The notes beneath the pieces are model-generated. The model was not told the DNA's origin. It did no database searches and worked only from the letters and a program-made list of their open reading frames with translations. Shown one piece after another: positions 23,601-48,759 of a stretch of DNA of 64,000 bases. Position 1 is the stretch's first letter, and each line of letters opens with the position of its first letter. The position numbers were made by a program, and so were the translations under genes. This stretch comes from Marchantia polymorpha subsp. ruderalis (Eukaryota; Streptophyta; Marchantiopsida; Marchantiales; Marchantiaceae), in contig AP031357.1 of the NCBI GenBank assembly GCA_037833965.1, positions 330,001 through 394,000 on the forward strand, in the 5' to 3' direction.

Positions 23601-24306
23601 CAAGGATTTACGGGAGAAGCATGCGTGTTTGTGGAAAGAGTATAATCTCGTGCGGAAGTCGCACACCCACTACGACGCATTGAAGCAGGCGAGACTGGAA
23701 GAGCTCACAAGGGATGTGGTGAAGACCACGGAAGAACTGATTTCTGAGAAGACGCAGAATCAGGTTCTGTCAGAGGAGCTCGTGCGACAGACGCGGTTGT
23801 TGGCGGAGTGTCAACTCGCACGACAGGCGGATGAGGATTTAATCCGCAGGCTGCAGTCGGAGTGCGGGGAATTGAGAGCTCAGCGTGCGGAGGCCGAATC
23901 GCAGTTGGTGGTAATTGAAGATGATCGTAGGCGAGAGGCAGATCGCACGAAGGAGGAGATGGCCAGGCGAGTTGCCCACTGTCTCAAGGGCTACGCCCAC
24001 TGGGAAGTGGCGGCGCAGGAGAAACTCACACTGCGTGAGTTGGAGCTTCGTGCAGCCGGGTTGTTGTCAGGTGACAGTAGGAGTCGGCGGAAGGTGGCGA
24101 AGAAGTTAGATTCCTTTCTGTCGAAGGCGCGGGATACCATGTCCACCCTTGAGGCGGAGGTGTCCGCGGCGTTGCAGCGTTTGGGACTGCGCAGTCGAGC
24201 GGAAGACTGGCAGGGTAGGGAGTTAGTGCGCGGCAGTCCGTCGCGCAGGAGGCGAAGCATAGGTTCCGCGGAGTGTAGTGTAGCGTGGTTCCGTGCCGGC
24301 GTGTAG
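20629..24306 (+). pseudogene. D1 coiled-coil protein gene, broken
   Basis: The start MSKLNRLRMLPLRLPQ is chosen because D4 has MSKVPQLRVSPLRVPQ at the same place. Domains: a Trp-rich N-terminal region (LLWGWNYICVDMVREWL, WAQALGRCAD, NGYKTRDYKDRFCRTLA) to about 21290; a basic/acidic linker; after the insertion, a Pro/Ser/Arg-rich linker made largely of CCTTCGG units (22350-23030); then from 23190 the acidic segment, SEQVIPLLRYLDRK, a long coiled coil (about 23560-23960) and CLKGYAHWEVAAQEK with a basic tail. Defects: TAG at 21121-21123, another near 21164, the insertion at 21475, and a frame change near 23030. Function unknown. The coiled coil suggests self-assembly or a structural role. Confidence 0.75.
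21475..22346 (+). mobile_element. 872-bp insertion in D1 ORF, probable solo LTR or small nonautonomous element
   Basis: Comparison with D4 shows that codons for RPLH and SRPKQ, adjacent in D4-like proteins, are separated here. The insert begins TGTAAGACCAGGTGTTGCAC and ends near TTGCAACACGAAGTG; GTGTTGCA and TGCAACAC form inverted repeats near the two ends. It has no ORF, a strong TATA box (GTATAAATAG, 22031-22040) and a repeated 25-bp unit (GGAGTGAGCACTTCTATTTT...) near 21665-21720. The target duplication is unclear (TGCAC against TGTGC), so exact ends are uncertain. Confidence 0.6.
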
Positions 24307-24354
24307 CATAGTGCAGTGTAGTGCTAGTTAGGACTTAGAAGGTATAAAGTAGTT

Positions 24355-24371
24355 CAAGGCGTCTTGCCTTG
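24355..24371 (+). other. Conserved hairpin downstream of the D1 ORF
   Basis: CAAGGC-GTCTT-GCCTTG forms a 6-bp stem just after TATAAAGTAG. D4 has the same stem with a changed loop (57756-57772), and D3 has a different stem, CCCAAGG/CCTTGGG (63965-63984), at the equivalent position. This pattern suggests a structure kept in family D RNAs, perhaps for 3'-end formation or recognition. Confidence 0.55.
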
Positions 24372-25101
24372 GGATCTTTCCCAACATCAGAAGTGCAGAT
24401 CAGGAACTCATTTTCTCTGCGTGTTTGTGTCCTTAGTTCTGTCACCACGCACGAGGAGCTACAACTTGGCGTTCCGCATTTTGTAGCTGAAGGCCTTCGG
24501 CCGAATGTTCAGAGCTAGTACATTGGTTAGAGACTTGAGTAGTTCGGATCTACACCTGCGGGTGATTGCCGATGCTTAGAGCCAGTGACAAGTTAGATAC
24601 TTGAATAGTTTCGCCCCTACACCTTCGAGTGTTTGTTCCTGATTGTACTCCTTCGGGATTTTTCCCCTGAATGCCAAAGTGAAGTTTTGCTACTTCGTGT
24701 AAGCCTTGGTTGTAAATTCAGGTTACGCTGCAGCAGGTGCCTTTGGGATAACCCCTGTAGTATTTCTGGGAATGACAAGTGCCTAAGAATTCAAACTCTT
24801 CAATAGACTGTTATGGTATGTTACTGGAATGTTTCTCAGTGAGTCCTTCAGTGCGGACCTGTGTTCTCTGCGCGTTTTGTGAGTTGAGAGTGTTGTTCAC
24901 CGCGTATGAGTGACTTCGATTCGAAGTAGGCAGTCCAAACCGGGTTTCCTACGCTAGCAGCAAGCTAGTGGAAGTGTTGTAAAAGCCGGAGTTGGGAGTC
25001 ACTACCCGCAGCTTTGCTGAGCGTACTCTTGAGAGACCTTCCCCCTGAAATCTTGAGTAGAGGTCCTAACGGATCTCTGGGTTGTGTTTCTGTAGTTTCA
25101 G

Positions 25102-25123
25102 GTGTGTGTGTGTGTGTGTGTGT
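25102..25123 (+). repeat. (GT)n microsatellite in D1 3' region
   Basis: Eleven GT units. The D4 copy carries a (CA)n tract of the same length at the equivalent place (57091-57113 on the plus strand), so the tract was inherited with the element and is not a later local expansion. Confidence 0.85.
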
Positions 25124-25322
25124 TTTACGCTGCACTATGCGACCTCCGAGTGCGCTCCGAGTGGACACTTGCAGTATTTCTGGGAGTGACAGTCGCCTGA
25201 GAATTCAAACTCCTCAATAGTCTGTTAAACGTGACACTTTGTACCCTGTGTGTTCCTCTGTCCCTGTGGGTTCGACCTTTCTACCACTATATTGCAGTTT
25301 TAGCCTTTAGTGGGTTATTACA

Positions 25323-25923
25323 GTGAGGACGGAGAAGTTGAGGAGTGTCCAGGAGTTTGAGCGGAAGACTGGTGAGAGTCTTCGGGAGGCATACACTCGT
25401 ATGCGGCGATTGATCTCAGTCACTCACAATGTAACTGAGGCACAGGCGATCCAGTACTGATACGGTCCAGTCACCGACATTGGCATATGTGTTTGCTCTT
25501 TCTAAGAAGATTGAGCTTAACATAGTGAAGAAGAGAGTGATGACATCTTTATTTGCTAGAGACACGACCACTACCCCTCATGTCCCGCAGAGCACGGCAC
25601 AATCTCGACCCTTTAGTGGTGGTAGTGATGGGGGTCGCGGAGCGCAGACACGACATCAGACGGCCGCTAGTGATACAGGAGCACATGCACCAATGCCGTC
25701 ATTTGCTAGTCAGCAGTAGGGACCGGCATGTTGAACATGTGGAGGCGATCATCCGCGCAGAGATTGTCCCAGATGGCCGGATGTCGGAGTTCACATGCCA
25801 AATCCCAGTCATAACAGGTGGTGTGTGACCACTGTGGTCGAGCAGGTCATACTCAAGATCAGTGTTTTGAACTTCACATAGAGTTGACATCTAGTGGTAG
25901 AGGTTGTGATGGTGATGCTCCCC
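25323..25923 (+). pseudogene. A1 gag, C-terminal part with zinc knuckles
   Basis: After the D1 target duplication the gag frame resumes as RTEKLRSVQEFERKTGES, LREAYTRMRRLISVTH, then AYVFALSKKIELNIV. Two zinc knuckles follow: one with a stop inside it (C-x2-C-x3-H-x4-C near 25730-25770) and one standard CDHCGRAGHTQDQC near 25816-25857. The knuckles would bind element RNA. Stops and a frame change break the protein. B1 inserted just downstream with TCCCC duplicated, and A1 continues at 31960. Confidence 0.78.
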
Positions 25924-26343
25924 TGTAACCATCTTTAGTTAGTTAGAACTAAAGTAGAGGTTACTCTAAATATGGATGTAGATACTTTAGTGTGCACTAG
26001 TCATAGCTGCCACATCAGCGATCCGCGCACTTGGTAGCTACAGAGTGGATGTGTTAGTTGACAGTGCCACGTCAGCAATCCGTGTGCTTGTAGGTAAGGA
26101 TTGAGTGTGTTAGTTAGTGTGTTAGTTGGGTGCGCCACGTCAGCGATCCGTGTGCTTGTTAGGGTTATCCGCCATGTCATCCATCCACTAGGAGTGGGAT
26201 GGATGGTGGGGATTAGATCTTATCACCTTGTACTTGTTGGTGAGAGCTATATAAGGGAGAGGAGAACCATTGTTGGTATTTCTCATCTTCAGAGTTTACG
26301 TTTCTATCTTCGAGTGAACTTCTCTCTAAACCCTAGTGTTACA
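25924..26343 (+). repeat. B1 5' LTR
   Basis: 420 bp, TG...CA, with TATATAAG at 26248-26255 as core promoter. It differs from the 3' LTR mainly by a 12-bp tandem unit (GTTAGTTAGTGT region) and a few substitutions, so insertion is fairly recent compared with the decay of the coding region, or the element was copied while already defective. Confidence 0.93.
26010..26180 (+). promoter_or_regulatory. Array of CCACRTCAGC motifs in the LTR
   Basis: CCACATCAGC (26010), CCACGTCAGC (26067 and 26135) and a weaker GCCATGTCAT (26171) are spaced roughly 60 bp apart, each followed by GATCCG or AATCCG. CCACGTCA is a hybrid ACGT element of the kind bound by plant bZIP factors. The array lies 70-240 bp upstream of the TATA box in every B LTR here, so it is a likely enhancer. 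Confidence 0.5.
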
Positions 26344-26344
26344 A

Positions 26345-26356
26345 TGGTATCAGAGC
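26345..26356 (+). other. Primer-binding site of B1 (initiator Met-tRNA)
   Basis: TGGTATCAGAGC begins two bases after the 5' LTR and is the standard plant complement of the initiator methionine tRNA 3' end. B2 has the same site (45226-45237 on the minus strand). Confidence 0.93.
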
Positions 26357-26956
26357 GACCTTGCTCTTTCCTTGAGTGTGGATTACCCTCATGGAATAGC
26401 AAGTGAGTGATGATGGAGTGTAGTCTTGAGAGTGTATAGAGGCTGGCAGAGGTCATTCATCTGCATGTAGAGAGAGGTGGAAGGGGGAAATTGTGTTTTT
26501 GCAGATATAGACGGGATTGACAGGAATCCAGTACCGCACTGGCCAATTCTTAACCTATTCGATATTCACCTTCGTTGCATGGAGAAACATCATTTTCGGA
26601 TGTACCTTGTGGCTTGTTGGGGTGCAGATTTTATGACTAGAGTGATGGAGTCAAGAGTGCCACTGATTCTTCCAATAGTTACTTATGGAGAGACTTGGGA
26701 TTCTACTATATACATTCTATACTGATTGTTTCATGGATTTGAATCGCGAACCACCTAACCCGGTTCGATTCAGCACTTATGTAGAGATTAGAACAGTATA
26801 TAGACAAAAGAGGATATGGAGAGATTTTCTTGTGAGGAATTATGGAGAGTAGTACTAAAGAGCTTTGATAGAATCACCTGCACCTTTTGTGACTTCTTTG
26901 TTGAGAGGTTACATAGTGATTATACTCACTTTGTATTAGAGGGATTGTGAGAAATC

Positions 26957-28120
26957 ATGGGAACATCAATTGATATGGGTGAGGTTCTCAATGCAATCAT
27001 GGTGGAGATGAAGGAGTTGAGAAAAGCAATAGTAGATGGGCATACCAAGCAGCAAGCCATGGAAGATAAAATCTTCGCATTAGAGAGTGAGAAAGTAGAG
27101 AGAGAGAGAGTTGGAGAGATGGAAGTTGAACCTCAAGTTCAAGCTTTCCAAGTTCAGCCAGAACCAACTCCTATTGATGCAGCAGAGGAAAATAGGAGAC
27201 GTCTTCAAGAGATTGAAGATCAAGCAAATCTTTTGCTTCGAATGGGAAAATCCTGTAAGGTGGAAGCTTACAAAGAGAGTAGAGCAATGAGAGTGTTAGA
27301 GGGATGGATTATGAGGATGAATATTCATTTATCCCATTTTCATGTTTCTGATTATATTGCAAGAATGTTCATGAGATCTTATCTTACGGATAAGGCTCTC
27401 ACATGGTACACAACATGGGAGAGAATGCTTTCATAACGAAGTGCTACCATTTCGTGGAGTGGAATGCAGGAAGGACTTTTGCAAAATTTTCAAGCGGTGG
27501 ATTCTCTTCAAACTGCAAGAATGAAGTTGTGGGATCTGAAGCAGAAAGGAGGTATTCATGAGTACATTGAAGAATTTCGTGATCTTCAAGTATCTATCAT
27601 AGATATGAGTGGAGCTGAAGCCTTGGACGTGTTCAAACGAGGCTTGAAAAATCGAATTCGAAAGGAGGTGATGGTAAGCAATCCATCTACTGTGAATGAA
27701 GCAATCGCAATTGCTCAACGAATTTCAGGTGCTTTTGGTGTCACACACGGTGAACCAGTGAGCAATTTTAGAGATCCATCTGGTCCAACACCGATGGAGT
27801 TGGGAAACCTTCGACGTAGAGAAGGTTTTGCACCAACAAGAGTACCACCACCAAGATTTGGAGGTGAGATTAGGCGACCAGGAGTTCCAAATTTGCAAGA
27901 AGGTTATGCAAATAATGGAATGGTTCGAGGAGGAGCTGGAGTTCGTGGCAATCGCCAATGCTATGCATGTGGACGAATGGGCCACATAGCCAAGTTTTGT
28001 CGAGTTCGGCCGACACAACAAGGAGGACGGCCAATGCAGCGACGACCGTTCAACAATATGGAGGGGATAGAGTATGAAGAGGTGGAGAAAGCAGTTTCGG
28101 GAAACGAAGATCACCAGTAA
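26957..28120 (+). pseudogene. B1 gag
   Basis: The frame starts MGTSIDMGEVLNAIM and has a coiled-coil N-terminus, the Ty3-type capsid core (EGWIMRMNIHLSHFHV, MRSYLTDKALTWY, IHEYIEEFRDLQ) and one zinc knuckle CYACGRMGHIAKFC near 27958-27999. It ends NEDHQ. A stop at 27434-27436 interrupts it. The product would form particles and bind RNA. The protease frame overlaps its end in another frame. Confidence 0.88.
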
Positions 28121-31100
28121 TCTTGCCTCGCGGCCTTACTGGTTCACAAAGCGAAGAAAAGGCGAGGTTGGAAGAAGGCAATGGTTGGGAGCTCATGGAA
28201 GGAGTAAGAAGCATGCTCAACTCATTGTCACTGATGGTTTCATGGAAGGACACAAGGTGAGAGTTTTAATTGATCCTGGAGCAACGGAGAATTTTGTATC
28301 AAGGAGTGTTGCTATGAAGTTAGGTTTGATGTTGATGAAGGACGTGAGTGAAGAAGTTGAATTGCCAAACGGGCAAACTTAAGTGATAGAAACACTACCA
28401 CGGAGTGTAGAATTATCCATAGGTAGATACAAGGAGAGCATTGAATGGAGAGTAATTCGTTTAGCTCGATATGATGTCATCCTTGGAATGCCATGGATGG
28501 AACAATATAATCCGAAGGTAGATTATAGAAGAAAAGTGATTACAAGTAGTGGATGGAAGATCTATGGAGAGAGAATTAGATCTCAGAATAGGAATTTATC
28601 CCTCTTTGTGATGGGTACAACATCCAATTCTAGAGATGATGTATGTTTCCTTGGACTTATAAGAAATATTGGGTCCACGGACAAACCTTACATCCCGGAG
28701 TCCTTGAACAACATTTTTATGGAGTATAAAGATGTTTTACCAAATGATCTACCTGCAAGATTACCACCAAAGAGGCGAGTAGATCACAAGATTGAGGTGA
28801 TACTTGGAAGTACACCAACTTGCAAAGCTCCATATCGTTTGGCTCCAAACGAATTGGAAGAATGCAAAGCTCAAGTGGAGGAGATGTTGAGCAAGGGATT
28901 CATTTAACCAAGTGTTTCACCTTATGGAGCTCCAGTACTCTTTGTGAAGAAGAAGGATGGATCCATGAGACTATGTATCGATTATCGTGGGTTGAATCAG
29001 CAAACGGTGAAAAACAAATATCCATTACCTCGTATGGATGATTTGTTTGATCAACTTCAAGGAGCGAAGTACTTCACCAAGCTAGATTTGAGAAGCGGCT
29101 ACAATCAAATTCGAATTGCAGATGAAGATGTTCACAAGACAGCTTTTCGTACTAGGTATGGACACTTTGAGTATCTGGTGATGCCTTTTGGTCTCACTAA
29201 TGCACCAGTTACATTCATGGGATTGATGAACGATATCTTTTGCCCTTATTTAGATAAATCTGTCATTGTTTTTCTAGATGATATATTGGTGTATAGCAAA
29301 ACTTTGAGTGATCATAGAAGTCATTTACGAGAGGTACTTCAAGTTTTAAGAGACAATCAATTGTATGCCAAAGCTTCTAATTGTGAATTTGGCAAGTCAG
29401 AGGTAGATTACTTGGGTCATAGAGTTACAGCTACAGGAATCCAAGTGATGAGTGAGAAGATAGATGCCATTCAGAAATGGATAGCACCTGAGGATCAAAC
29501 TCAATTGAAAAGTTTTCTAGGGCTCACTGGATTCTATCGTAGATTTGTGAAAGGTTTTGCTCGACTAGCTCAGGCCTTGACTTCCATGTTAGGGAAAGGT
29601 CAAAAGTGGAGATGGGGAACAACTCAAGAGTTAGCTTTTCAAGCATTGAAAGATGCTTTGTTACACGCACCTATTCTCAAGTGGTATGATTCTAACCGTT
29701 CTATCAAGTTGGCCACTGACGCATCAGGTACAACAGTAGGTGGCATACTTCAACAAGAATGGGAGGATGGATGGCATCCAATTGTTTTCTATTCTCAAAA
29801 GTTGATGGCGCCAGAACAAAATTATCACACGACAGAACGAGAGGAGTTAGCTATCGTGTTGGCAACCAAACATTGGAAGCATTATTTGGGTGATAAGGAG
29901 TTTGTGGTGTAGACTGATCATAAACCCTTGGTTTATTTAGAAACTAAGAAGGATCTGTCCAAACGACAAATTCGATGGGCAGAGTGGCGTCAACGCTTCA
30001 ACATGAAGATTGTGTACGTGGAGGGAAAGAAGCAACTTGCAGATGCTCTCACACACATGCCTTGTTTGAATCATGTTGCAGAATTGAAAATTCAGGCGGA
30101 TTGGTGGAGCAAGATGTCACAAGCCACAAAGGAGGATGAAGAGATCACTCGGGCACTACAAACTAGAAAGGCAGAGAAATCTCGAGGTTTGGCGTTTTAC
30201 AATCAGCGTATATGGATTCCACAAGATCACGATTTGCGCATAATGATTTTGGCAGAAAGTCATGATACAGCCATTGCAGGTCATGTGGGAGTGGAGAAAA
30301 CCGTGGAGAGTATACAACGAGTGTACTATTGGCCCAAAATACGTGAGGATGTGAAGTCTTATGTTTGAAGTTGTGTTGCTTGTCATCAAAACAAGGCAAG
30401 TAATCAAAAACCAGCGGGTTTATTACAGCCTCTTCCTATTCCCGAACAGCGGTGGGAACATGTCACCATGGATCTTGTATGTGAGTTACCAAGGACTTCG
30501 TTAGGACATGATTCAGTGGTGGTTTTTGTGGACAAATTGAGCAAGATGATTCACATCAGACCAACCACAAAAACAGTAACAGCTCCACAACTAGCTCAAT
30601 TGTATCTAGATGCAGTTTTTGAGAATCATGGCTTAAGCAAAGTGTTAATCACGGATAGAGGTACTCACTTCACTAGTTTATTTTGGAAAACTTTGTTTAG
30701 TTTTTTCAAAACAAAACTAGCAATGTCAACGGCCTATCACCCTCAAACGTAGGACAAACCTGAGAGGGCAAATAGAACCATAGAGGATATGCTACGAGCA
30801 TTCACATTAGAAGAGCAAGAAGAGTGGGACAACCTTTTGCCACTTGTGGAATTTGCATATAACAATTCTGTTAATGCATCCACAAAAGTGTCTCCATTTT
30901 TTCTTATGTATGGAGCTCCTACGATAACTTCTTCAAGTTTGATGAGAGAGGAGTTTTCGACCAAAGTTGCAGCAGTCAACGAATTCGTGGAGCATATTCA
31001 CCGAGGACTACATTAGGCCAAGGAGAAGTTGGTGATAGCTCAAAATTGGCAAAAGCAGCATGGCGATGCTCATCGTAGAGAAGTGATTTTTGAGGTTGGA

Positions 31101-31538
31101 GATCATGTTTGGTTATCTACAACGAATTTGTCTCTTGTTGGAACACCAAAGTTAAACCCTAGGTTCATTGGTCCATTTTTGGTTTTGAAGCGTGTTGGTG
31201 AAGTGTCATACAAGTTGGAACTTCCGTCACATATGAAAATACATCCAGTATTTCATGTGTCACGATTGCGAAAACATGTACCATGACCAAAACAATTCAC
31301 CAACCAACCAGCACCACCTCCTCTTTCAACCTTGATAGCAGATCATGAGGAGTTTGAGGTAGAAAAGATACTCAAGAAACGAATTCGAGGTCATAAATAT
31401 CCCAAAGTAGAGTATCTGATTCAATGGAAAGGCTATCCATCGTATGAATCAACTTGGAAACCAGCTAAAAATTTAGCAAATGCACCTTTGATAGTTCAGG
31501 AGTTTGAACGTATGTGCAACGAGGACGTTGCATCTTAA
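28074..31538 (+). pseudogene. B1 pol: protease, RT, RNase H, integrase, chromodomain
   Basis: One continuous frame apart from seven stops (28380, 28905, 29910, 30366, 30750, 31014, 31284). In order: protease (VLIDPGATENFVS, near 28262), reverse transcriptase with [17 protein letters not shown] (28944) and the catalytic FLDDIL (about 29272), RNase H ([12 protein letters not shown], about 29712), integrase zinc region (HDTAIAGHVG...SCVACHQ), catalytic core (MDLVCELP, LITDRGTHF, KPERANR), and a chromodomain from 31332 (EEFEVEKILKKRI...YLIQWKGYPSYESTWKP). The chromodomain would steer integration to methylated histone marks. Nearly all stops are explained by CAG, CAA or CGA becoming TAG, TAA or TGA. 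Two of them, 28380 and 28905, are shared with B2. Confidence 0.92.
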
Positions 31539-31551
31539 AAGGAGGGAGGTT

Positions 31552-31959
31552 TGTAACCATCTTTAGTTAGTTAGAACTAAAGTAGAGGTTACTCTGAATA
31601 TGGATGTAGATACTTTAGTGTGCACTAGTCATAGCTGCCACATCAGCGATCCGCGCACTTGGTAGGTACAGAGTGGATGTGTTAGTTGACGTTGCCACGT
31701 CAGCAATCCGTGTGCTTGTAGGTAAGGATTGAGTGTGTTAGTTGGGTGCGCCACGTCAGCGATCCGTGTGTTTGTTAGGGTTATCCGCCACGTCATCCAT
31801 CCACTAGGAGTGGGATGGATGGTGGGGATTAGATCTTATCACCTTGTACTTGTTGGTGAGAGCTATATAAGGGAGAGGAGAACCATTGTTGGTATCTCTC
31901 ATCTTCAGAGTTTACGTTTCTATCTTCGAGTGAACTTCTCTCTAAACCCTAGTGTTACA
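31552..31959 (+). repeat. B1 3' LTR
   Basis: 408 bp, same as the 5' LTR apart from the 12-bp indel and scattered changes. TATATAA lies at 31864-31870. It ends AGTGTTACA, and is followed by the TCCCC duplication and the resumption of A1. Confidence 0.93.
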
Positions 31960-32026
31960 TCCCCGATGCCGACGTGGCTGAGGTGGTAGAGGTGCCGGTG
32001 CAGTTGGACGCCCTGTAGCGAGTGCT

Positions 32027-32401
32027 ATGTCATCCAAAGAGAGCGCTATGGCGGCCCGAATTGAGCACTTGGAGAAGATGCTTGCTGCTATGGCGGATAC
32101 TGGAGCGAGCACGTCCACATTTCACGAGGGAGAGTATTTCTCCTATTTGGCGATTGCCGCGCAGGTGGAGAGACTGGTATTGCGCGCGCTTCAGAGCCAC
32201 GCGGGGCGACCGTGGAGTTGGATCCTTAGAGAGGTGAGGGTGGACGACAAGCCAAACTTCCTCAGTTATTTTTGTTGTTGGAGGTGGGCAAGACTTCATC
32301 CATGAGACTTGCACCACCTAGTGATTTCTATTGGGAGGACTGAGACATCTACGTCACGTGTTGTGGACATTGACACACCATCTAATGCAGTGATGCGTAT
32401 T
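32027..32401 (+). pseudogene. A1 ORF2 N-terminus, truncated
   Basis: The frame begins MSSKESAMAARIEHLEKMLA, matching MAARIEQLEQRLAAMAGM at the start of A2 ORF2, with a short coiled coil followed by a Ser/Thr-rich region. In A2 about 1.15 kb including the protease follows. In A1 that stretch is deleted, and the text jumps from PSNAVMR straight to the end of methyltransferase motif I. No protease remains in A1. Confidence 0.7.
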
Positions 32402-33540
32402 CTTGTACGTAGATACTTGTACGTGGAGAAGGACAAGAATGCACGTCGAGTTTCTTCACGACATGTCACACATTTGATGTAGCGTTTTCCTTTGTTGTTG
32501 CTGCGATCAGCTGTTCGAGGATACTAGAAGGCGTTTTCTTCAGACATTTCATTGTTGGGGGCGCCAGACCTTGATCGAGTTGAACATATCGATTTGGTGA
32601 GTGCGGGATGGTCATGTGAGGGGCACACACGCGCTGGGCATGGAGCAGGGTTGCATGATCATAGATCTAGGATGTTTTGGGAGACGCTACGAGTGTTACG
32701 TCATCTCTAGGAGCAGCAGACACGTTCTCCAGCATACATTCTAGAGAACGTACAATTGTTGGGTGACACTCGGGCTCAGTTGATGGCGAGTGTCTATGAG
32801 ATAAGGGCATGGATTGGATCAGCAGTGTTGTTGGATGTTGCGAGGGTTGGTTCACGTGCTCATCGTGCACGTTTATGGTGGACCAACCTTGTGCCACGAG
32901 AGATATTGCATCATGCGTATAATGATGTGCATCGCATTCCTACACTCACCATTGACAGGATCTTGGATGTCTCTCGATACTCTTAAGTGGTTAGAGTTGC
33001 TGACAGGTCACCTATGGCGTTGGTGAACCGCGTAGGTTAACCTCGGATGACTTTACCTACGTTAGATAGTTATCCGGCATCACATGCATATTGTGATGGT
33101 GGACCGTGACTACTGTGGGACAGTACCCTACATCAGTTGGTGGAGCTCAATGCAGATGAGAGAGAGCGTGCGATGGAATTTATGACTGGTGTGACCGTGG
33201 CTTCTTCAGTTTCAGAGGCATCGCGTCGTTAGGTTTTGGGTCAGGCTATGGACTTGAACTGCTTGACATGGATTGTGAGCTTGAACTTGGCCGAGCAACG
33301 CCGTTTGCGCGTTGAATTGGTGGTTGTTGCATCATTTGTTAGCTCATTGCCTACCGGGATGGTAGTGGCAATGGATGGGGGCGACAGGCGAGAAATTTGT
33401 CATCCTCGGAGTTCATGGGACGTGACAAGAGCACTTGCTAGAGTGGCCGCCCATGCAGTTGGAGATGTTGGTCACGTCTAGGTTGCTACAAAGGAGGGTA
33501 CGGATAGCACTTCTTTGTTAGATGTGGCATAACAATCAGT
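32402..33540 (+). pseudogene. C5 cytosine-DNA methyltransferase domain within A1 pol (DNMT3/DRM-like)
   Basis: In one frame broken by about eight stops I read: end of motif I/II (RRYLYVEKDKNARRVS, 32405); motif IV with the catalytic Cys (LVSAGWSCEGHTRAGHG, Cys at 32615-32617, where the usual Pro before it is Ser); motif VI ENV (ILENVQLLGD, 32744-32752); motif VIII (SRAHRARLWWTN, 32852-32887); motifs IX-X (LNADERERAMEFMTGVT, about 33145, and VLGQAMDLNCLTWIV, 33233-33277). Order and spacing match a compact DNMT. The enzyme would methylate carbon 5 of cytosine. It sits between the protease position and reverse transcriptase, so it was part of the polyprotein. Motif I itself (the AdoMet-binding DLFGG) is deleted here but present in A2. 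Captured DNMTs are known from charophyte and dinoflagellate retrotransposons; assignment is firm, activity of this copy excluded. Confidence 0.87.
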
Positions 33541-33558
33541 GATAGTATCGCCTCCCTC

Positions 33559-35060
33559 TTGTGTGTCCATGGAGGAGGAGTGGGAGCCATCGGAGGAGAG
33601 AGGCGACGGTTGATACAATTCCTACGTGACTATAGGAGTTGTTTTGCCTTCAGTATGAAGAAGTTGGGTACTTTGATTGGACCCGACATACGGATAGAGT
33701 TGGCTAGTGATACACCAATCTTTCGTCGTCCCTATCGATATAGTGATATGGAAAGGGATTTGATTCGGAGTCGGACGTTGGAGTTATTGGAGGCTGGGTT
33801 AGTGGAGTTGTCGCATGGTGAGCATGCTTCAGCCACTGTTATGTCGGCGAAGAAGGATGTACAAGGATTGGCGCATGTGTGTAGACTACCGTTCTATCAA
33901 TTGGCAGACGAAGGCTGATAAGTATGCCATGCCTACACCTGAGGAAATCTTTGATGTGGTGGGACATGCGAGGATGTTTAGTACTTTGAATCTTTGAGCA
34001 AGATACCATCAGTTGCCGATTCGGGAGGAGGACAAGGCCAAGACAACGTTTTGGGGTGTCAACTCCCACGGCAAGGATTGTTTGTATAAGTGACGATTCT
34101 TACCCTTTGGGTTGAAGAATGCACTTGCTAAGTTTCAGAGAGTGATGTACAGGATTCTAGCGGGGTTGGATTTTGTCACATGTTACATTGATGATATCTT
34201 GGTGTTTAGCGACACGGTGGAGCAACACTAGACACATTTGCAGATTGTGCTTGAGCAGTTGAGGGCTCATGGTTTGTGGTTACATCTTGGGAAGTGTAGG
34301 TTCTTCCAGGAGAAGGTGGAGTACTTGGGTCATGTGATCTACCCAGGTGGTTTGGGAGTTCAGCAAGCAAAGGTGGATGCTATTGCGCGCATTCCTCGTC
34401 CAACGGATGTGAGTAGAGTTTGTGCATTCACGGGTTTGGCGAACTATTACCGGAGGTATGTGAAGGGATTCAGTGCTATAGCAAAGCCTTTGAACCATTT
34501 GCTAAAGTCGGATCTGGAGTAGCAATGGGGAGATGAGCATGATAGAGCGTTTGTTGAGCTCAAGGCCAGGTTGGTGGCCGCTCCCATCTTGAGGAGACCT
34601 ATCAGAGGTCGTCCATACCAGTTGCACACTGATTGAAGTATGTTGGGACTTGGAGCGGTGTTGACGTAGTGTGATGATGAGGGCAAGGAGTTTGTGATTG
34701 CGTATGCTAGTCGTTCGAACAATGCAGCAGAGTCGCTGTATAGTTCGTACGAGGGAGAGTGTTTGGCAGCGGTGTGGGTTGTGGCACACTTTAGGTTTTA
34801 CTTGTTTGGTACGTAGTTTACCCTTGTTACCGATCATCAGCCGCTCAAGTGGTTGATGGAGTTCGACAAGCTCACAGGGAAGCTTGCACGGTGGGCTCCC
34901 ATCTTGCAGGAGTACGACTTTCAGGTGGTGCATAGGCCTGGAGTTGCGAACCTGGATGCTGACGGTTTGAGGCGGAACACATGCACTAGCTAGGAGGATG
35001 ACACTAGAGCTAGATGGCATGGTGAGGTTGATGAGGAGATGGTGCCAGATTGGCATGCAT
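33559..35060 (+). pseudogene. A1 reverse transcriptase and RNase H
   Basis: Ty3-type RT: RRRLIQFLRDYRSCFAFS, then PYRYSDMERDLIRSRTLELL, a frame change near 33860, CVDYRSINWQTKADKYAMP, and the catalytic YIDD at 34184-34195 followed by ILVFSDT. The thumb and connection read LGHVIYPGGLGVQQAKV and LANYYRRYVKGFSAIAKPL. RNase H follows with YQLHTD (catalytic Asp near 34630), SYEGECLAAVWVVAHF and LVTDHQPLKWLM. At least six stops, mostly TAG in place of CAG, interrupt it. In A2 the same region is better preserved. Confidence 0.85.
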
Positions 35061-35379
35061 CTGCCTTCATGTATTGGTTAAGTGGAGCCTCTAGTAGGGA
35101 GTACCACTTGACATCTTACTCTAGTCAGAAAGTGGATTGTTAGTCTTCGGATCCTGAGGTTGAGGATGGTGGTGTGGACTAGCGTGATGTTCACGATGAT
35201 GCGTTGATGTTGGAGTTCCTACGAACATGTATGGTGCCAGACACAGTGGGTGACTAGCAGCGAGATCGTGTTCTCCAACGGGCGAAGAGATACCAATTGG
35301 AGGGATCACATGTTCTCCGACTGTGGGAGGACGGTAGGGTACGAGTAGTACCGCATCCAGCTTAGAGAACGCGTATTGT

Positions 35380-36057
35380 GAGGCATGCTCATGAGGAGTT
35401 GGGACATTTTGGAATGAAGCGTACGTACAGCTTACTCCTTGGTCAGTATTGGTGGCGTGGTATGCATACACAGGTATAGCAATTGGTATCACGTTGTAGG
35501 GTTTATTGGTGGCGTGGTATGCATACACAGGTATAGCAGTTGGTATCACGTTGTAGGGTTTGTGATCATGTGAGCGCATCGTTCAATGCCTCGACACCAA
35601 AGTTACATCCTTACCTATCATGGGATTGGGTTACCGTTGGAGTTTAGATTTTGCTAGACCACTACCTTTGACTGTACGACATCATCGGTATGTGTTGATG
35701 ATGGTGGAGCATTTCTCCAAGTGGATTGAGTTGGTAGCACTACAAGACAAGGCGAGTGAGGGAGTAGCGTATGCTTTCCTTGACAGGGTGCTTAGTCACT
35801 TTGGTGCACCAGCTGAGGTGTTGACCGACCAGGGGACAGAGTTTCAGGGGGAGTTTCATGTCTTGTGTGACAAGACGCTGATTGATCACCGGACCACGTC
35901 TTGAGATCATCGAGAGGCAGTAGGTTTGGCTGAGCGGATAGTACAGACACTGAAGAGAGCGTTGCGCAAGTATGGCCTACAGAAGGGGCATCTTGGCAAT
36001 TGGGATATTCAGTTACCATGGTTGGCCATGTGATATCGATTCAGTCGTCAAGCATCC
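35380..36057 (+). pseudogene. A1 integrase core
   Basis: The HHCC zinc region is recognisable (HAHEELGHFGMKRTY... and SRCRVCDHV) but contains an in-frame 57-bp tandem duplication. The catalytic core shows the first Asp in YRWSLDFARPLPL, the second in VLTDQGTEF (about 35820) and the Glu in LAERIVQTLK (about 35925), that is a retroviral-type DDE. It would insert element cDNA. Stops and one frame change are present. The presence of a DDE enzyme matters because the terminal repeats are arranged in a way otherwise typical of tyrosine-recombinase elements. Confidence 0.82.
35448..35561 (+). repeat. 57-bp tandem duplication in A1 integrase
   Basis: Units 35448-35504 and 35505-35561 are nearly identical, starting ATTGGTGGCGTGGTATGC. 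The unit length of 19 codons keeps the frame. A2 has a single copy, so the duplication is private to A1. Confidence 0.9.
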
Positions 36058-36696
36058 TTGGCTTTGATTTCACCATATTTTCTATTGTACGGCCGAGATC
36101 CAAACTTGCGAGCAGCGATTCGTCGTGAGTCTAGCGAGGTGGTGAACCTTGATGATCCAGATATGTGGGTGAGAGTGTGTTCTCAATGTGCATTGCTCTT
36201 TCGGAGAGTTATGCCTGTAGCCTTCGAGAACCTTGCGATTGCTCAGCATAGGGATACGTTGCGGTATGCAACGATCCGCGGAGGAGGTTATCGACCATCG
36301 ATTTGTAGGTTCCGTGTGGAAGACTACGTCTATTTACAGCAAGCTGCATCAACTACGTTGTATGTGACGGCAACACGCACTATCTTGCGAGTGCGAGAGG
36401 TGTTACCTTCTGGAGTTCTCATGTTGGAGGGTCGTGACGGCGTTGTTTGGAAGGATCATGTGTGCAACTGTGCGCCATGCCACCTCCCAAACATTGATGG
36501 TACTATGGATCCAAGCTTGACGATTGTACATGCCGGCTTCAGGTGCATGTTATGTGGGTCAGCTGATCAGGCGCCCCATATGTTGGTGTGTGATAGGTGT
36601 TCTAGAGGATGGCACATGTCGTGCTTGACTCCATCTATCGATGTTGTTCCTACTGGACGGTGGGTTTGTCCTCGATGTAATTCAGAGGGTAGATGA
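36058..36696 (+). pseudogene. A1 integrase C-terminal region ending in a PHD finger
   Basis: An intact 212-codon frame. Residues 1-30 (SPYFLLYGRDPNL) are the usual end of a Ty3 integrase core, 60-135 the SH3-like C-terminal domain (FRVEDYVYLQQ, ILRVREVLPSGVLMLEGRDG). From residue 161 (36538) a C4HC3 PHD finger follows: CMLC, VCDRC, WHMSC, WVCPRC with correct spacing and the conserved Trp before the last pair. PHD fingers bind histone H3 tails, so this may replace the chromodomain as a targeting module. A2 keeps the same finger (39623-39780), with one stop in it. Upstream frames are broken, so no full polyprotein is possible. Confidence 0.85.
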
Positions 36697-36841
36697 CTGG
36701 ATCTTCACATGTTATGAATTGCTGATAGGCAACTAACGATGGGGCGACATAGCACCTGGCCTACTGGTTCGTGCACCCATGAAGTTGCATAACATGTAGT
36801 TGTAGATAGGGCTACCTGGGAGTAAGAGGGACCTGACCGCC

Positions 36842-36855
36842 AGCTAGGGGGGCGA
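36842..36855 (+). other. Polypurine tract of A1
   Basis: The purine-rich AGCTAGGGGGGCGA directly precedes X1, marking the expected start of plus-strand synthesis and hence the left border of the reverse-transcribed LTR at X1. A2 has GCTAGGGGGACG at the same position (39461-39474, minus strand). Confidence 0.65.
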
Positions 36856-37373
36856 GTTGTGATATCTTTGTGTGTGGACACTCCCGTTCCTTGTGTATAT
36901 GTGTGAGTTGTGAGTAGAGCATGTCAGCGATGTATGATGTTTGGCGATAGCAAGTCACACGACAACTGTCATGTGTATACACGTTAGTGCAGTTGCAGAT
37001 CGACGTTGGTGTCGATTTGAGTTCAGACACGCTGGATTCGAGTGTGAGTCGGATGACGTTGAGAGTCGGCTAACGTTGAGACGCGGACCGTAGGCTAGTT
37101 CAACTTTCCAGGTTCATATTCGTGGCGAGCTCGAAGAACTAACAGTTCTTGGAGTTGAGCCTTTCGCGCAAGGGTCAATCCCATTAGCTTCGACTCTTAT
37201 TCTACATGCGAGTAGTGAGTTTGGCTCGACTCTTTGTACAGTTTGTGTTTTGAAACTGATTTTAGTTGTGATACCTTTGTGTGTGAACACTCTCGTTCCT
37301 TGTGTATATGTGTGAGTTGTGAGTAGAGCATGTTAGTGATGTATGATGTTTGGCGATACTGAGTAGCACGACA
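36856..37373 (+). repeat. X1-Y2-X2 compound 3' terminus of A1
   Basis: X1 (36856-36966) and X2 (37265-37373) are about 110-bp near-identical copies starting GTTGTGATAYCTTTGTGTG and ending CACGACA. Between them lies Y2 (36967-37264), the second copy of the 5' terminal Y1. The X1-Y2 junction reads CACGACA-AC-TGTCATG, that is element end, two bases, element start. X2 ends at the GAGG target duplication. Confidence 0.88.
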
Positions 37374-37377
37374 GAGG

Positions 37378-38970: not shown

Positions 38971-39460
38971 TATCGTGCGAATACGTATCTCCGTACACTC
39001 TACATCGCTGACATGCTACTCACATACATATACGCACACATACACACATATAAAGCGCGAGAGAGAACACACTCGAATGTCACAACTGAAATAAACGGGA
39101 GATTCCCCATTGAAATTTCCGTCGGTGGTTTAACCTACTGGCAAAACTGTCACCGTCACAAACATAGTCAAGCCAAACCCACTCCACACTTGGAGATTGC
39201 AGGTCGATGCTCCTGGACACTACTCCCAACGCGCTAGGCTTGACTCGAAGAACTGACGTTCTTCGAGCCGTCCCCGACTGTATACCCATCACGACTCAAG
39301 CTCGACACTATTTTTAGCAAGACACCAAAAACTGCATGACAGCTGTTGTGCAAAAACGTATTGCCGTACACTCTACATCGCTGACATGCTACTCACATAC
39401 ATATACGCACACATACACACATATAAGGCGCGAGAGAGAACACACTCGAAAGTCACAACT
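38971..39460 (-). repeat. X1-Y2-X2 compound 3' terminus of A2
   Basis: In element orientation X1 is 39460-39342, Y2 39341-39087, X2 39086-38971. X units start AGTTGTGAC and contain TATATGTGTGTATG and AGCATGTCAGCGATGTA, the latter also in A1 X. Y2 starts TGTCATGCAGTTTTTGG and ends CGTTTATTTCA; a related Y1 lies at 54516-54776. The X1-Y2 junction reads ACAACA-GC-TGTCATG. Y2 contains the palindrome CTCGAAGAAC-GTCA-GTTCTTCGAG. Confidence 0.87.
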
Positions 39461-39622
39461 CGTCCCCCTAGCTGGCGGTCAGGTTCCTCTGATTCCCAGG
39501 TAGCACTATCTACAACTACATGCTATACACCTTTGTGGGTGCGCGAACCAGTAGGCCGGGTGCTATGTCGCCCCATCGTTAGTCGCCTATCTTCAATTCA
39601 TAACATGTGAAGATCAAGTCAT

Positions 39623-40296
39623 CTACGCCTCTAAAGTACATCGAGGACAAACCCATCGTTCAGCCGGAATAACATCGATAGGCGGAGTTAGGCACGACAT
39701 GTGCCATCCCCTAGAGCACCTATCACACACCAACATACGGGCTGCCTTACCAGCTGATCAACACAGCATGCACCTCAAGCCAGCACGTACTATCGCTAAG
39801 CTTGGCTCCATAGTGCCATCTACGTTTGGGAGGTGGCATGGCGCACAATTGCGCACATGATCCTTCCAAACAACGCCGTCACGACCCTCCAACAGGAAAA
39901 CTCTAGAAGGTAACACCTCCCGCACTTGCAAGATTGTGCGTTCTACCGTCACATCCAATGTCGTCGATGTAGTCTGCTGTAGATAGACGTAGTCTCCCAC
40001 ATGGAATCTACGAATCGATGGTCAAAAACCTTCTCCCCGAATGATTGCATATCGCAACGTATCTCTATGTTGAGCAATCACAAGGTTCTCAAACGCTGTT
40101 GGCATAACTCTCCAAAAGAGCTCTGTCCGCTAAATAACATACTCTCACCCACATATTTGGGTCATCAAGGTTCACCACCTTGCTAGACTCACGACGAATC
40201 GATGTTGGCAAGTTTGGATCTCGGCCGTACAATAGAAAATATGGTGAGAACCAAGCCAAGGATGCATGCCGACTAAATTGATATCCCATGGCCAAC
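39623..40296 (-). pseudogene. A2 integrase C-terminal domain and PHD finger
   Basis: Continues the integrase interrupted by B2: FSPYFLLYGRDPNL (about 40250), MGDYVYLQQTTSTTLDVT (from 40000), LEGRDGVVWKDHVRNCAPCH, then the PHD finger CMLC, VCDRCSRGWHMSC, RWVCPRC ending at 39623. One stop lies inside the finger, after the first Cys pair. All zinc-binding residues match A1, showing that the finger belongs to the family and was not picked up by one copy. Confidence 0.8.
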
Positions 40297-40716
40297 TGTA
40301 ACATTAGGGTTTAGAGAGAAGCTCACTCGAAGATAGAAACGTAAACTCTGAAGATGAGAGATACCATTAATGGTTCTTCTCTCCCTTATATAGCTCTCAC
40401 CAACAAGTACAAGGAGATAAGATCTAATCCCCACCATCTATCCCACTCATAGTGGATGGATGACATGGCGTATAACACTAACAAGCACACGGATCGCTGA
40501 CGTGACGATTCCAACTAACACACTAACTAACACACTCAATCCTTACCTACAAGCACACGGATTGCTAACGTGGCACTGTCAACTAACACATCCACTGTGT
40601 ACCTACCAAGTGCGCGGATCGCTGACGTGACAGCTATGACTAGTGCACACTAAAGTATCTACATCAATATTTAGAGTAACCTCTACTTTAGTTCTAATTA
40701 ACTAAAGATGGTTACA
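40297..40716 (-). repeat. B2 3' LTR
   Basis: 420 bp, ends TGTAAC and GTTACA, with the same ACGT-motif array and TATATAA box (40386-40392) as the B1 LTRs. Confidence 0.92.
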
Positions 40717-40729
40717 AACCTCCTTCCTT

Positions 40730-43470
40730 TTAAGATGCAACGTCCTCGTTGCACATACGTTCAAACTCCTGAACTATCAAAGGTGCATTTGCCAAATTTT
40801 TAGCTAGTTTCCAAGTTGATTCATACGATGGATAGCCTTTCTATTGAATCAAATACTCTACTTTGGAATATTTATGACCTCGAATACGTTTCTTGAGTAT
40901 CTTTTCTACTTTAAACTCCTCATGATCTGCTATCAAGGTTGGAAAAGGAGGTGGTGCTGGTTGGTTGGTGAATTGTTTTGGTCGTGGTACATGTTTTCGC
41001 AATCGTGACACATGAACTACTGGGTGTATTTTCATATGTGACGGAAGTTTCAACTTGTATGACACTTCACCAACGCGCTTCAAAATCAAAAATGGACCAA
41101 TGAACCTAGGGTTCAACTTTGGTGTTCCTACAATAGACAAATTTGTTGTAGATAACCAAACGTGATCTCCAACCTCAAAAACCACTTCTCTACAATGAGC
41201 ATCGGCATGCTGCTTTTGCCGATTTTGAGCTATCACCAACTTCTCCTTGGCCTGATGTAGTCCTCGGTGAATATGCTCCACAAACTCGTTGACTACTTGA
41301 CCCTCACATGACCTGCAATGGCTGTATCATGACTTTTTGCCAAAATCATTGTGCGCAAATCGTGATCTTGTGGAATCCATATACGCTGATTGTAAAACGC
41401 CAAACCTCGAGATTTCTCTGCCTTTCTAGTTTGTAGTGCCCGAGTGATCTCTTCATCCTCCTTTGTGGCTTGTGACATCTTGCTCCACCAATCCGCCTGA
41501 ATTTTCAATTCTGCAACATGATTCAAACAAGGCATGCGTGTGAGAGCATCTGCAAGTTGCTTCTTTCCCTCCACGTACACAATCTTCATGTTGAAGCGTT
41601 GATGCCATTCCGCCCATCGAATTTGTCGTTTGGACAAATCCTTCTAAGATTCCAAATAAACCAAGGGTTTATGATCAGTCTCCATCACAAACTCTTTATC
41701 ACCCAAGTAATGCTTCCAATGTTTGGTTGCCAACACGATGGCTAACTCCTCCCGTTCTGTCGTGTGATAATTTTGTTCCGCCGCCACCTACTTTCAAGAA
41801 TAGAAAGCAACTCGATGCCATCCATCCTTCCATTCTTGTTGAAGTATGCCACCTACTGTTGTACCTGATGCGTCAGTGGCCAACTTGATAGAACGGTTAG
41901 GATCATACCACTTGAGAATAGGTGCGTGTAACAAAGCATCTGTCAATGCTTGAAAAGCTAACTCTTGAGCTGTTCTCCATCTCCGTTTTTGACCTTTCAC
42001 TAAAATGGAAGTCAAGGCCTGAGCTAGGCGAGCAAAATCTTTCACAAATCTACGATAGAATCCAGTGAGCCATAGAAAACTCTTCAATTGAGTTTGATAC
42101 TCAGGTGCTATCCATTTCTGAATGGCATCTATCTTCTCACTCATCACTTGGATTCTTGTAGCTGTAACTCTATGACCCAAGTAATCTACCTCTGACTTGC
42201 CAAATTCACAATTAGAAGCTTTGGCATACAATTGATTGTCTCTTAAAACTTGAAGTACCTCTCGTAAATGACTTCTATGATCACTCAAAGTTTTGCTATA
42301 CACCAATATATCATCTAGAAAAACAATGACAGATTTATCTAGATAAGGGCAAAAGATATCGTTCATCAATCCCATGAATGTAGCTGGTGCATTAGTGAGA
42401 TCAAAAGGCATCACCAGATACTCAAAGTGTCCATACCTAGTACGAAAAGCTGTCTTGTGAACATCTTCATCTGCAATTCGAATTTGATTGTAGCCGCTTC
42501 TCAAATCTAGCTTGGTGAAGTACTTCGCTCCTTGAAGTTGATCAAACAAATCATCCATACGAGGTAATGGATATTTGTTTTTCACCGTTTGCTGATTCAA
42601 CCCGCGATAATCGATACATAGTCTCATGGATCCATCCTTCTTCTTCACAAAGAGTACTGGAGCTCCATAAGGTGAAACACTTGGTTAAATGAATCCCTTG
42701 CTCAACATCTCCTCCACTTGAGCTTTGCATTCTTCCAATTCGTTTGGAGCCAAACGATATGGAGCTTTGCAAGTTGGTGTACTTCCAGGTATCACCTCAA
42801 TCTTGTGATCTACTCGCCTCCTTGGTGGTAATCCTGCAGGTAGATCATTTGGTAAAACATCTTTATACTCCATAAAAATGTCGTTCAAGGACTCCGGGAT
42901 GTAAGGTTTGTCCGTGGACCCAATATTTCTTATAAGTCCAAGGAAACATACATCATCTCTAGAAATGGATGTTGTACCCATCACAAAGAGGGGAAAATTC
43001 CTATTCTGAGATCTAATTCTATCTCCATAGATCTTCCATCCACTACTTGTAATCACTTTTCTTCTCCAATCTACCTTCGGATTATATTGTTCCATCCATG
43101 GCATTCCAAGGATGACATCATATCGAGCTAAACGAATTACTCTCCATTCAATGCTCTCCTTGTATCTACCTATGGATAATTCTACACTCCGTGGTAGTGT
43201 TTCTATCACTTAAGTTTGCCCGTTTGGCAATTCAACTTCTTCACTCACATCCTTCATTAACATCAAACCTAACTTCATAGCAACACTCCTTGATACAAAA
43301 TTCTCCGTTGCTCCAGGATCAATTAAAACTCTCACCTTGTGTCCTTCCATGAAACCATCAGTGACAATGAGTTGAGCATGCTTCTTACTCCTTCCATGAG
43401 CTCCCAACCATTGCCTTCTTCCAACCTCGCCTTTTCTTCGCTTTGTAGAACCAGTACAGCCGCGAGGCAA
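40730..43470 (-). pseudogene. B2 pol, integrase core deleted
   Basis: Protease (VLIDPGATENFVS, about 43290), RT with [17 protein letters not shown] (42648) and FLDDIL (about 42320), RNase H ([12 protein letters not shown], about 41880) and the start of the integrase zinc region (AKSHDTAIAGHV) are followed at about 41285-41300 by a direct jump to VNEFVEHIHRGLHQAKEK, so the catalytic core is lost. The C-terminal domain (VGDHVWLSTTNLS) and chromodomain (VEKILKKRIRGHKY, to 40730) remain. Stops include TAA after NGQT and TAA after KGFI, both also in B1. Confidence 0.9.
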
Positions 43471-43472
43471 GA

Positions 43473-46443: not shown

Positions 46444-46539
46444 AACACCATCCTCAACTTCAGGATCTGAAGGTCGATCATCTACTCTTTGATTAGAGTA
46501 AGATGTCAGATGATCCTCTCTACTAAAGTCTCCACGTAA

Positions 46540-48100: not shown

Positions 48101-48106
48101 TAGTTG

Positions 48107-48747: not shown

Positions 48748-48759
48748 GTTTCCCTCTAA

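What the first reader, a model, noticed from the sequence alone, without database searches (positions are those of the whole stretch)
32402..33540. Cytosine-DNA methyltransferase built into a plant Ty3/gypsy polyprotein
A1 carries, in one frame between the protease position and RT, the ordered C5 methyltransferase motifs IV, VI, VIII and IX-X. A2 carries motif I at the same place. Two diverged copies in opposite orientation share it, so it belongs to the element family. DNMT capture by retrotransposons has been described in charophytes and dinoflagellates (work by de Mendoza and colleagues, from memory). A land-plant lineage that also carries a PHD finger would be a notable extension. A self-methylating element could hide in, or direct, host heterochromatin.
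Basis: partly seen in the sequence, partly recalled or inferred. Interest (0 to 1): 0.95.

Follow-up and report, generated by a model that had tools for sequence, protein, structure and literature searches.

The report
Plant retrotransposon carrying a DNA methyltransferase
A high-copy jumping gene of what looks like a land-plant genome carries its own DNA-methylating enzyme, kept intact by selection, next to its viral-style genes; the same kind was known from an alga, but here it has a different gene layout and a histone-reading finger.

Summary
The frame at 32399-33481 matches the C5-methyltransferase profile (PF00145 8.6e-5, just over the cut-off); its nearest solved structures are DNMT3A/B. 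A2 holds motif I. Both window copies are dead, each lacking a different part of the domain.

The window's own genome (241 Mb, 9 contigs) settles it: 132 scored places match nearly the whole A1 domain, 26 of them in stop-free frames of 1,348-1,365 codons. Catalytic motifs are intact in most copies, and dN/dS (median 0.15) is near that of protease (0.12) and RT (0.10). The enzyme is a selected, standard part of a Ty3/gypsy family.

New details: gag-PR-DNMT, then a UAG (46 of 46 loci) followed by CAA CCA (44 of 46), then RT to PHD in the same frame. The DNMT thus sits in the Gag-side product and Pol is probably made by readthrough. Terminal repeats are A-coding-B-A-B, as in DIRS, yet both window copies have 4-bp target duplications and a DDE integrase.

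Closest known: KnitGypsy-Dnmt3 of Klebsormidium (2018). This is a new variant, in a probable land-plant genome. Methylation of its own cDNA is the likeliest role but is not shown; CpG ratios give it no clear support.

The parts
14996..37373 (+). Element copy A1 (TGTCATG...CACGACA), with elements C (19135-25322) and B (25924-31959) nested in it; about 10.15 kb without them
   Evidence: Terminal repeats and 4-bp duplication GAGG on both sides; nested insertions by comparison with A2; length
14992..14995 (+). Target-site duplication GAGG, left (right copy 37374-37377)
14996..15293 (+). Left A repeat of A1 (no B match beside it)
   Evidence: 90.6% identical to 36967-37264
15294..15305 (+). Site CTCGAAGAACTC directly after left A, in the place of a primer-binding site; 11 nt of it complementary to AGTTCTTCGAG inside A
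   Evidence: same site after left A of A2; complementarity reached by 2 of 10000 shuffles for A1 (11 nt) and 28 of 10000 for A2 (10 nt)
32399..33280 (+). DNMT domain remnant of A1 (motif II tail to motif X); motif I and protease deleted upstream
32591..32623 (+). Motif IV with the catalytic Cys, here GWSC; WPC in other copies
32741..32752 (+). Motif VI (LENV)
   Evidence: ENV in 47 of 48 loci
32858..32890 (+). Motif VIII (AHRARLWWTNL)
   Evidence: AHRAR in 47 of 48 loci
33155..33274 (+). Motifs IX-X
33530..33532 (+). Stop between the gag-PR-DNMT frame and the RT frame, TAA here, TAG in the genomic copies read
33839..34321 (+). Reverse transcriptase of A1, broken
   Evidence: PF00078 2.1e-24, stops as X
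35566..35904 (+). DDE integrase core of A1
   Evidence: PF00665 1.4e-12
36544..36678 (+). PHD finger at the end of the Pol frame of A1
   Evidence: PF00628 2.9e-10; nearest solved PHDs CHD4, DPF, ATXR5, PHF21A, KDM5
36846..36855 (+). Purine-rich AGGGGGGCGA directly before B1 (plus-strand primer candidate)
   Evidence: same place in A2 and L160
36856..36964 (+). B repeat, inner copy (B1)
   Evidence: 89% to 37264-37381
36967..37264 (+). Right A repeat; 2-nt spacer AC lies between B1 and A
37265..37373 (+). B repeat, outer copy (B2), right end of A1
38971..54776 (-). Element copy A2, with chromovirus B (40297-45657) nested in it; target duplication GACT
   Evidence: length 10,445 without B
50078..50119 (-). 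Zinc-knuckle-like CDHCHRPGHPRERC in the gag part of A2
   Evidence: sequence; no significant Pfam match
49182..49214 (-). Protease active-site motif LLDSGAQPLML of A2
   Evidence: weak PF13650 0.048, below its cut-off
48418..48474 (-). DNMT motif I of A2 (LLDLFGGISTGLAVVLQSG)
   Evidence: LDLFGG in 48 of 48 loci, though these were chosen by it
48107..48109 (-). UAG between the gag-PR-DNMT frame and the RT frame in A2 (TAG CAA CTA)
46540..46962 (-). RNase H of A2
   Evidence: PF17917 1.2e-30
45836..46222 (-). Integrase of A2
   Evidence: PF00665 6.8e-8, 33.1 bits against 32.6
39630..39775 (-). PHD finger of A2 (one stop inside; ends approximate)
   Evidence: reading frame; no separate profile match was run over the whole finger

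Best explanation
A1 and A2 are two decayed copies of a large autonomous Ty3/gypsy family of a plant genome. The first frame encodes Gag, protease and, at its end, a DNMT3-type cytosine-5 methyltransferase. After a leaky UAG the same frame continues as RT, RNase H, integrase and a PHD finger. Shown: the domain, its position, its spread over the genome, catalytic motifs intact in most copies, selection on it, the conserved stop context, the split terminal repeats and (in A1 and A2) the target duplications. Inferred: because it precedes the stop, the DNMT is made and packed at Gag level, so every particle carries many copies. There it methylates the new cDNA, or the DNA at the insertion, so that the copy enters the nucleus already marked and is treated as self or as silent chromatin. 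The PHD finger on the integrase guides insertion to chromatin of a given histone state, in the place where chromoviruses carry a chromodomain. I put the anatomy and selection at about 0.95, readthrough at 0.85 and cDNA or insertion-site methylation at 0.45.
For: Spread: (123 of 290 candidates scored). Selection: among 34 unique stop-free copies median dN/dS is 0.149 (quartiles 0.129-0.243, 522 pairs), against PR 0.124 (27 copies, 279 pairs) and RT 0.099 (16 copies, 43 pairs). Stop: TAG in 46 of 46, CAA CCA after it in 44, CAA CTA in 1, CAA CAA in 1; 11 of the 57 loci did not hold the place. PHD. Termini. DNMT3 side of the tree: element, host DNMT3, host DRM and DNMT3A on one side of a branch, support 93/89.
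Against: No activity, expression or methylation data exist here. CpG observed/expected is not lower in A (0.79, 0.74) than in B (0.57, 0.60), which has no DNMT, though lower than in C (1.08). The only tested Gypsy relative known to me, the KnitGypsy-Dnmt3 domain, gave no methylation in yeast, which its authors call inconclusive (PMC5890265). The element DNMT scores higher against viral enzymes (best 57.8 bits) than against the host's DNMT3 (36.1) or a DNMT3A segment of about 100 residues (28.9); the DNMT3 grouping is not starred, has long branches and odd composition of the element rows. 37 of 150 RT places have no listed DNMT upstream (A2 is one of them); they were not examined one by one and the lists are capped.
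Confidence: 0.85

Rival explanations
1. The DNMT is a passenger: a chance capture or insertion between PR and RT in a few copies, without function for the element.
For: Both window copies are broken and each lacks a part of the domain; 37 of 150 scored RT places have no listed DNMT upstream.
Against: 132 scored places carry it, 26 of them in stop-free frames of 1348-1365 codons; 47 of the 50 best RT places have it upstream; dN/dS 0.149, near PR and RT.
Confidence: 0.03
2. The domain methylates RNA (its own genomic RNA or tRNA primer), not DNA, to protect or package it.
For: It acts where the RNA is packed if made at Gag level; a DNMT2 (tRNA enzyme) is a weak PDB match of A1, E 0.0054; CpG ratios do not clearly favour DNA methylation.
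Against: With a stop-free copy no DNMT2 appears among 30 PDB sequences at E up to 0.001, 29 being DNMT3.
Confidence: 0.12
3. The element uses the DNMT against the host or its rivals: it methylates host or competing-element chromatin at insertion sites, changing the host epigenome, rather than its own cDNA.
For: A PHD finger on the integrase can bring the complex to chromatin; many copies could supply enzyme.
Against: No methylome here; K. nitens with a similar element has a methylome like that of land plants (PMC5890265).
Confidence: 0.2
4. The DNMT was captured from a virus or bacterium, not from a DNMT3 gene of the host lineage.
For: Bit scores are higher with viral enzymes (57.8) than with host DNMT3 (36.1); A1 alone: phage 39.3 against a DNMT3A segment 19.8.
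Against: PDB ranking is DNMT3 first for the element but M.HhaI first for both viral proteins asked (L002; L011); the folded A1 domain has only DNMT3 entries in the 50 rows shown, while a viral relative folded on nearly the same alignment has HhaI at ranks 1-7, with DNMT3 following from rank 8; the tree puts the element with DNMT3A, host DNMT3 and DRM (93/89).
Confidence: 0.25

Closest known systems
KnitGypsy-Dnmt3 of Klebsormidium nitens (de Mendoza et al. 2018, PMC5890265; parts 1-4 of 7 of the text read, plus passages)
   Same: LTR Gypsy with a Dnmt3-type domain of unrearranged order; repeats arranged as in DIRS while the genes are Gypsy (figure legend); purifying selection on the DNMT (their Ka/Ks < 0.2).
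   Different: Host probably a land plant, with a large family (132 scored places); DNMT ends the gag-PR frame before a conserved UAG, whereas theirs is described as in the Pol polyprotein ORF; PHD finger (the word PHD does not occur in their main text as held; their figure was not seen). No sequence comparison was possible: I had no K. nitens sequence at hand.
SymbioDIRS-Dnmt3 and SymbioLINE-Dnmt of dinoflagellates (same paper)
   Same: Retrotransposon-encoded cytosine DNMT; SymbioDIRS has A-coding-B-A-B repeats and a Dnmt3-type domain.
   Different: Those are DIRS (tyrosine recombinase) and LINE elements; this one has a DDE integrase, and its window copies have target duplications.
Chromoviruses (element B in this window)
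   Same: Ty3/gypsy order of RT, RNase H, integrase, with a chromatin-reading domain at the integrase end.
   Different: A carries PHD instead of a chromodomain, a DNMT, and split repeats; B has ordinary LTRs and a chromodomain (PF00385 2e-16).
DNMT3 / DRM de novo methyltransferases
   Same: Catalytic motifs, nearest PDB matches, fold, tree side.
   Different: Stands in a retrotransposon polyprotein; not close to the host's DNMT3 gene (36.1 bits).

Membership tests
C5 cytosine methyltransferase (PF00145) | Profile match over the curated cut-off with motifs I, IV, VI, VIII, X in canonical order | tested here: met
   A1 22.5 bits against 22; 5 of 5 genomic copies given, 38-43 bits; motifs in 44-48 of 48 loci
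DNMT3 family | Groups with DNMT3 genes against other C5 enzymes | tested here: inconclusive
   PDB ranking and fold favour DNMT3; tree 93/89, not starred, long branches; bit scores favour viral enzymes
DRM | Rearranged motif order (VI-X before I-IV) | tested here: not met
   order I, IV, VI, VIII, IX, X in one frame; the host gene L090 has the rearranged order
Ty3/gypsy (Metaviridae) | PR-RT-RNaseH-DDE integrase order | tested here: met
   RT, RNase H and integrase, PR motif (profile match only weak)
Ty3/gypsy (Metaviridae) | Two equal LTRs flanking the coding part | tested here: not met
   A-coding-B-A-B in A1 and A2; right end B-A-B in 8 of 12 loci, A1 included
DIRS | Split repeats A-coding-B-A-B | tested here: met
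DIRS | Tyrosine recombinase, no target-site duplication | tested here: not met
   DDE integrase and 4-bp duplications in both window copies; other copies not tested for duplications; no search for a tyrosine recombinase was made
KnitGypsy-Dnmt3 | Gypsy genes, Dnmt3-type domain, DIRS-like repeats | tested here: met
   against text and legend of PMC5890265; the Dnmt3 assignment is itself inconclusive (row above)
KnitGypsy-Dnmt3 | Sequence descent from the same capture | not testable with these tools
   no K. nitens sequence at hand; the protein database was switched off
Readthrough elements | Conserved in-frame stop with UAG CAR YYA context (consensus recalled) | tested here: met
   45 of 46 fit; 46 of 46 are UAG; readthrough itself not tested

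The most novel reading that the evidence does not exclude
The element is a self-marking retrotransposon that integrates from a circle: by ordinary reverse transcription (site after left A, purine tract before B1) its cDNA would be B-A-coding-B-A; joining the ends gives B-A-B-A, and the integrase re-opens it at the near-palindromic B/A junction (CACGACA-NN-TGTCATG), with a 2-nt stagger, giving the observed A-coding-B-A-B with 4-bp duplications. The Gag-level DNMT methylates this circular or linear cDNA before integration, and the PHD finger, of a type near H3K4me0 readers, places it, so that DNMT and PHD together rebuild in an element what DNMT3A does with its ADD domain.
Probability: 0.25. Interest if true: 0.92.

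Novelty: new variant of a known kind. Interest (0 to 1): 0.8.

Why it matters
Retrotransposons with their own cytosine methyltransferase were reported from a charophyte alga and dinoflagellates. Here such a family is large, in part stop-free and under selection in what looks like a land-plant genome, so the question of why an element should methylate DNA becomes testable with the methylomes and genetics available for bryophytes, if the host is one. Placing the enzyme before a leaky stop predicts a structural dose of methyltransferase in the particle, a concrete and falsifiable idea. The split repeats with a DDE integrase and target duplications join two replication styles that are usually kept apart.

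Tried and rejected
Rejected: chance match (0 of 9 control translations match PF00145); passenger domain; DRM-type order. A viral origin is not excluded. A CpG-depletion footprint of self-methylation was looked for and not clearly found: A1 0.79, A2 0.74, B 0.57 and 0.60, C 1.08, left flank 0.82, right part 1.01. Rfam: no match in the window at the gathering score. P0001 alone found no relative in viral contigs. The A1 5' leader finds only 10 places in the genome, so left ends of other copies were not read directly; they were inferred from paired A matches: 14 same-strand pairs among 40 scored A matches, 7 of them 10.1-10.8 kb apart, 6 at 13.0-27.2 kb, one at 404 bp. Read by eye from the lists: none of 13 left A copies has a listed B within 1 kb, 9 of 13 right copies have at least one; both searches scored only 40 candidates (of 280 and 605). 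Right ends: 8 of 12 loci B-A-B, 4 with one B only. The A2 motif I query alone is not significant. Counts from the genome search are lower bounds. dN/dS: 57 loci examined, 48 with a full I-X frame, 13 of these with stops dropped, one duplicate dropped. One search was given all 150 RT places, all 132 and 59 further ones, picked by eye, of the 123. One search was given 6 of the 35 stop-free element copies, 24 of the 59 viral-contig frames and 8 phage enzymes; DNMT3A had an unknown middle part. The folds used 34 of those 59 frames; the A1 model is weak (mean pLDDT 61, under 50 at 27-46 and 169-234). A narrow pattern for the stop context missed 38 of 57 loci and one search found 29; one search is the count used. 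Papers: PMC5890265 parts 1-4 of 7 and passages; PMC12344493 section 5 and passages; passages only of PMC6338049, PMC6453930, PMC10952607, PMC5784723; the rest only as search listings. I found no land-plant case of a DNMT-carrying Gypsy in print (listings, and passages of the papers named; one search failed); PMC12344493 says 'streptophytes' in general, citing the 2018 paper. PHD in Gypsy integrases was searched; none of the listed titles dealt with it and none was opened for it. The host as a Marchantia-like liverwort is my recollection of its karyotype, set against hit coordinates (C1 up to 4.7 Mb, the others up to 23-33 Mb), not a result.

Full report
Observation. Read with stops as X, 32399-33481 matches PF00145 at 8.6e-5, 22.5 bits, just over the curated cut-off; the other five frames and four other stretches give none. 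Sequence comparison with the PDB gives DNMT3A first (0.002) and a DNMT2 at 0.0054. Seventeen columns are invariant between A1 and eight phage C5 enzymes, among them the catalytic Cys, ENV, and the two Arg of motif VIII. In A2 the stretch at 48418-48474 is motif I, and only DNMT3A sequences (13 of 13 at E up to 10, best E 1.2) answer to it. A1 and A2 overlap for about 60 nt behind motif I, which shows that each has lost a different part of one domain.

Genome. After many unanswered tries, the search of the window's own assembly succeeded: the window is C8:330001-394000 of 241,466,482 bases in 9 contigs. With the A1 domain as query, 132 places were scored out of 589 candidates; they cover nearly the whole query, at 78-87% identity apart from A1 itself, and 26 of the 132 lie in open frames of 1348-1365 codons without a stop. 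Of 57 loci looked at, 48 have motifs I-X in one frame and 35 of these no stop. WPCQ stands in 45 of 48 (one more WPC before a stop, two not found), ENV in 47, AHRAR in 47, LGQA in 44. Motif I was part of the selection. The Ser of A1's GWSC is thus private decay.

Selection. Median dN/dS among unique stop-free copies with at least five synonymous differences per pair is 0.149 for the DNMT (quartiles 0.129 and 0.243), 0.124 for the protease, 0.099 for the RT stretch. Between A1 and A2 the pol and PHD blocks range from 0.14 to 0.72. The DNMT is maintained nearly as well as the enzymes an element cannot do without.

Anatomy. The four genomic copies printed read gag end, protease (LLDSGAQ), DNMT, linker, stop, then RT in the same frame. 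The stop is UAG in 46 of 46 loci that hold the place, followed by CAA CCA in 44, CAA CTA in 1 and CAA CAA in 1, although the two subfamilies differ in the residues before it (CVA in L093; EVS or EMS in L131, L134, L140). UAG CAR YYA is, from memory, the tobamovirus-type leaky context. Frames of 1042-1045 codons hold the RT and frames of 1044-1045 the PHD; RNase H and integrase between them were identified in the window copies. So the enzyme belongs to the Gag-side product. This differs from KnitGypsy-Dnmt3, described as in the Pol polyprotein ORF (PMC5890265).

Termini. A1 runs from TGTCATG at 14996 to CACGACA at 37373 with GAGG on both sides; A2 from 54776 to 38971 with GACT on both sides. 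Each has repeat A at the left and B-A-B at the right; 8 of 12 right ends read in the genome, A1 included, show B-A-B, the other four show B once. The inner B1/A junction is CACGACA-AC-TGTCATG in A1, CACAACA-GC-TGTCATG in A2 and CACGACA-GC-TGTCATG in L160, i.e. the two ends of the element fused with a 2-nt spacer. A purine tract stands directly before B1 in all three. After left A stands CTCGAAGAACTC in both window copies, complementary to a hairpin arm within A, which lies in the only stretch that blastn still matches between the A repeats of A1 and A2. This suggests self-priming, and a circle as the integration substrate; both are inference.

Host. Sixty-nine dirigent matches of 74 candidates, and genes read as DNMT3-type (L089) and DRM-type (L090) by their motif order, indicate a land plant, given that dirigents are confined to land plants (recalled). 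One small and eight larger contigs, judged by hit coordinates, recall Marchantia, which is recollection.

Role. cDNA or insertion-site methylation is the best guess. The CpG ratio gives it no clear support, and the K. nitens domain was inactive in yeast, which its authors call inconclusive. The PHD finger resembles those of CHD4, DPF, ATXR5, PHF21A and KDM5, several of which bind unmodified H3 (recalled).

Verdict. A real, large, selected family; known kind (KnitGypsy-Dnmt3), new variant in host, frame layout, PHD finger and documented termini.

Noticed in passing
window 25924-31959 (+), 40297-45657 (-), 55400-55819: Chromovirus B with 420-bp LTRs and a chromodomain (PF00385 2e-16) is nested in both A1 and A2 at different places in the same relative orientation, plus a solo LTR; CpG observed/expected 0.57 and 0.60.
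   Followed up: partly
window 57818-60547 (-), also 19135-25322 and 61699-63812: A stop-free frame of 909 codons and similar stretches without a Pfam match at E up to 0.01, apparently parts of another repeat family C, one copy nested in A1.
   Followed up: no
window 2432-3556 (-): Tc5/pogo-like transposase frame of 374 codons (PF03184 5.7e-20, PF03221 1.4e-6) in the AT-rich left part.
   Followed up: no
own genome C5:31860339-31861032: A-B-A arrangement, two A repeats 404 bp apart with one B between, perhaps a recombination product or a relic of a circle junction.
   Followed up: no
own genome C8:14540084-14550974: A copy whose left A repeat is listed at 100% identity to the query, which was taken from its own right A repeat, so a very recent insertion.
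   Followed up: no
window 15174, 37130, 39244, 54686: A hairpin in the A repeat with CTCGAAGAAC and its complement lies in the only part that blastn matches between the otherwise diverged A repeats of A1 and A2.
   Followed up: partly
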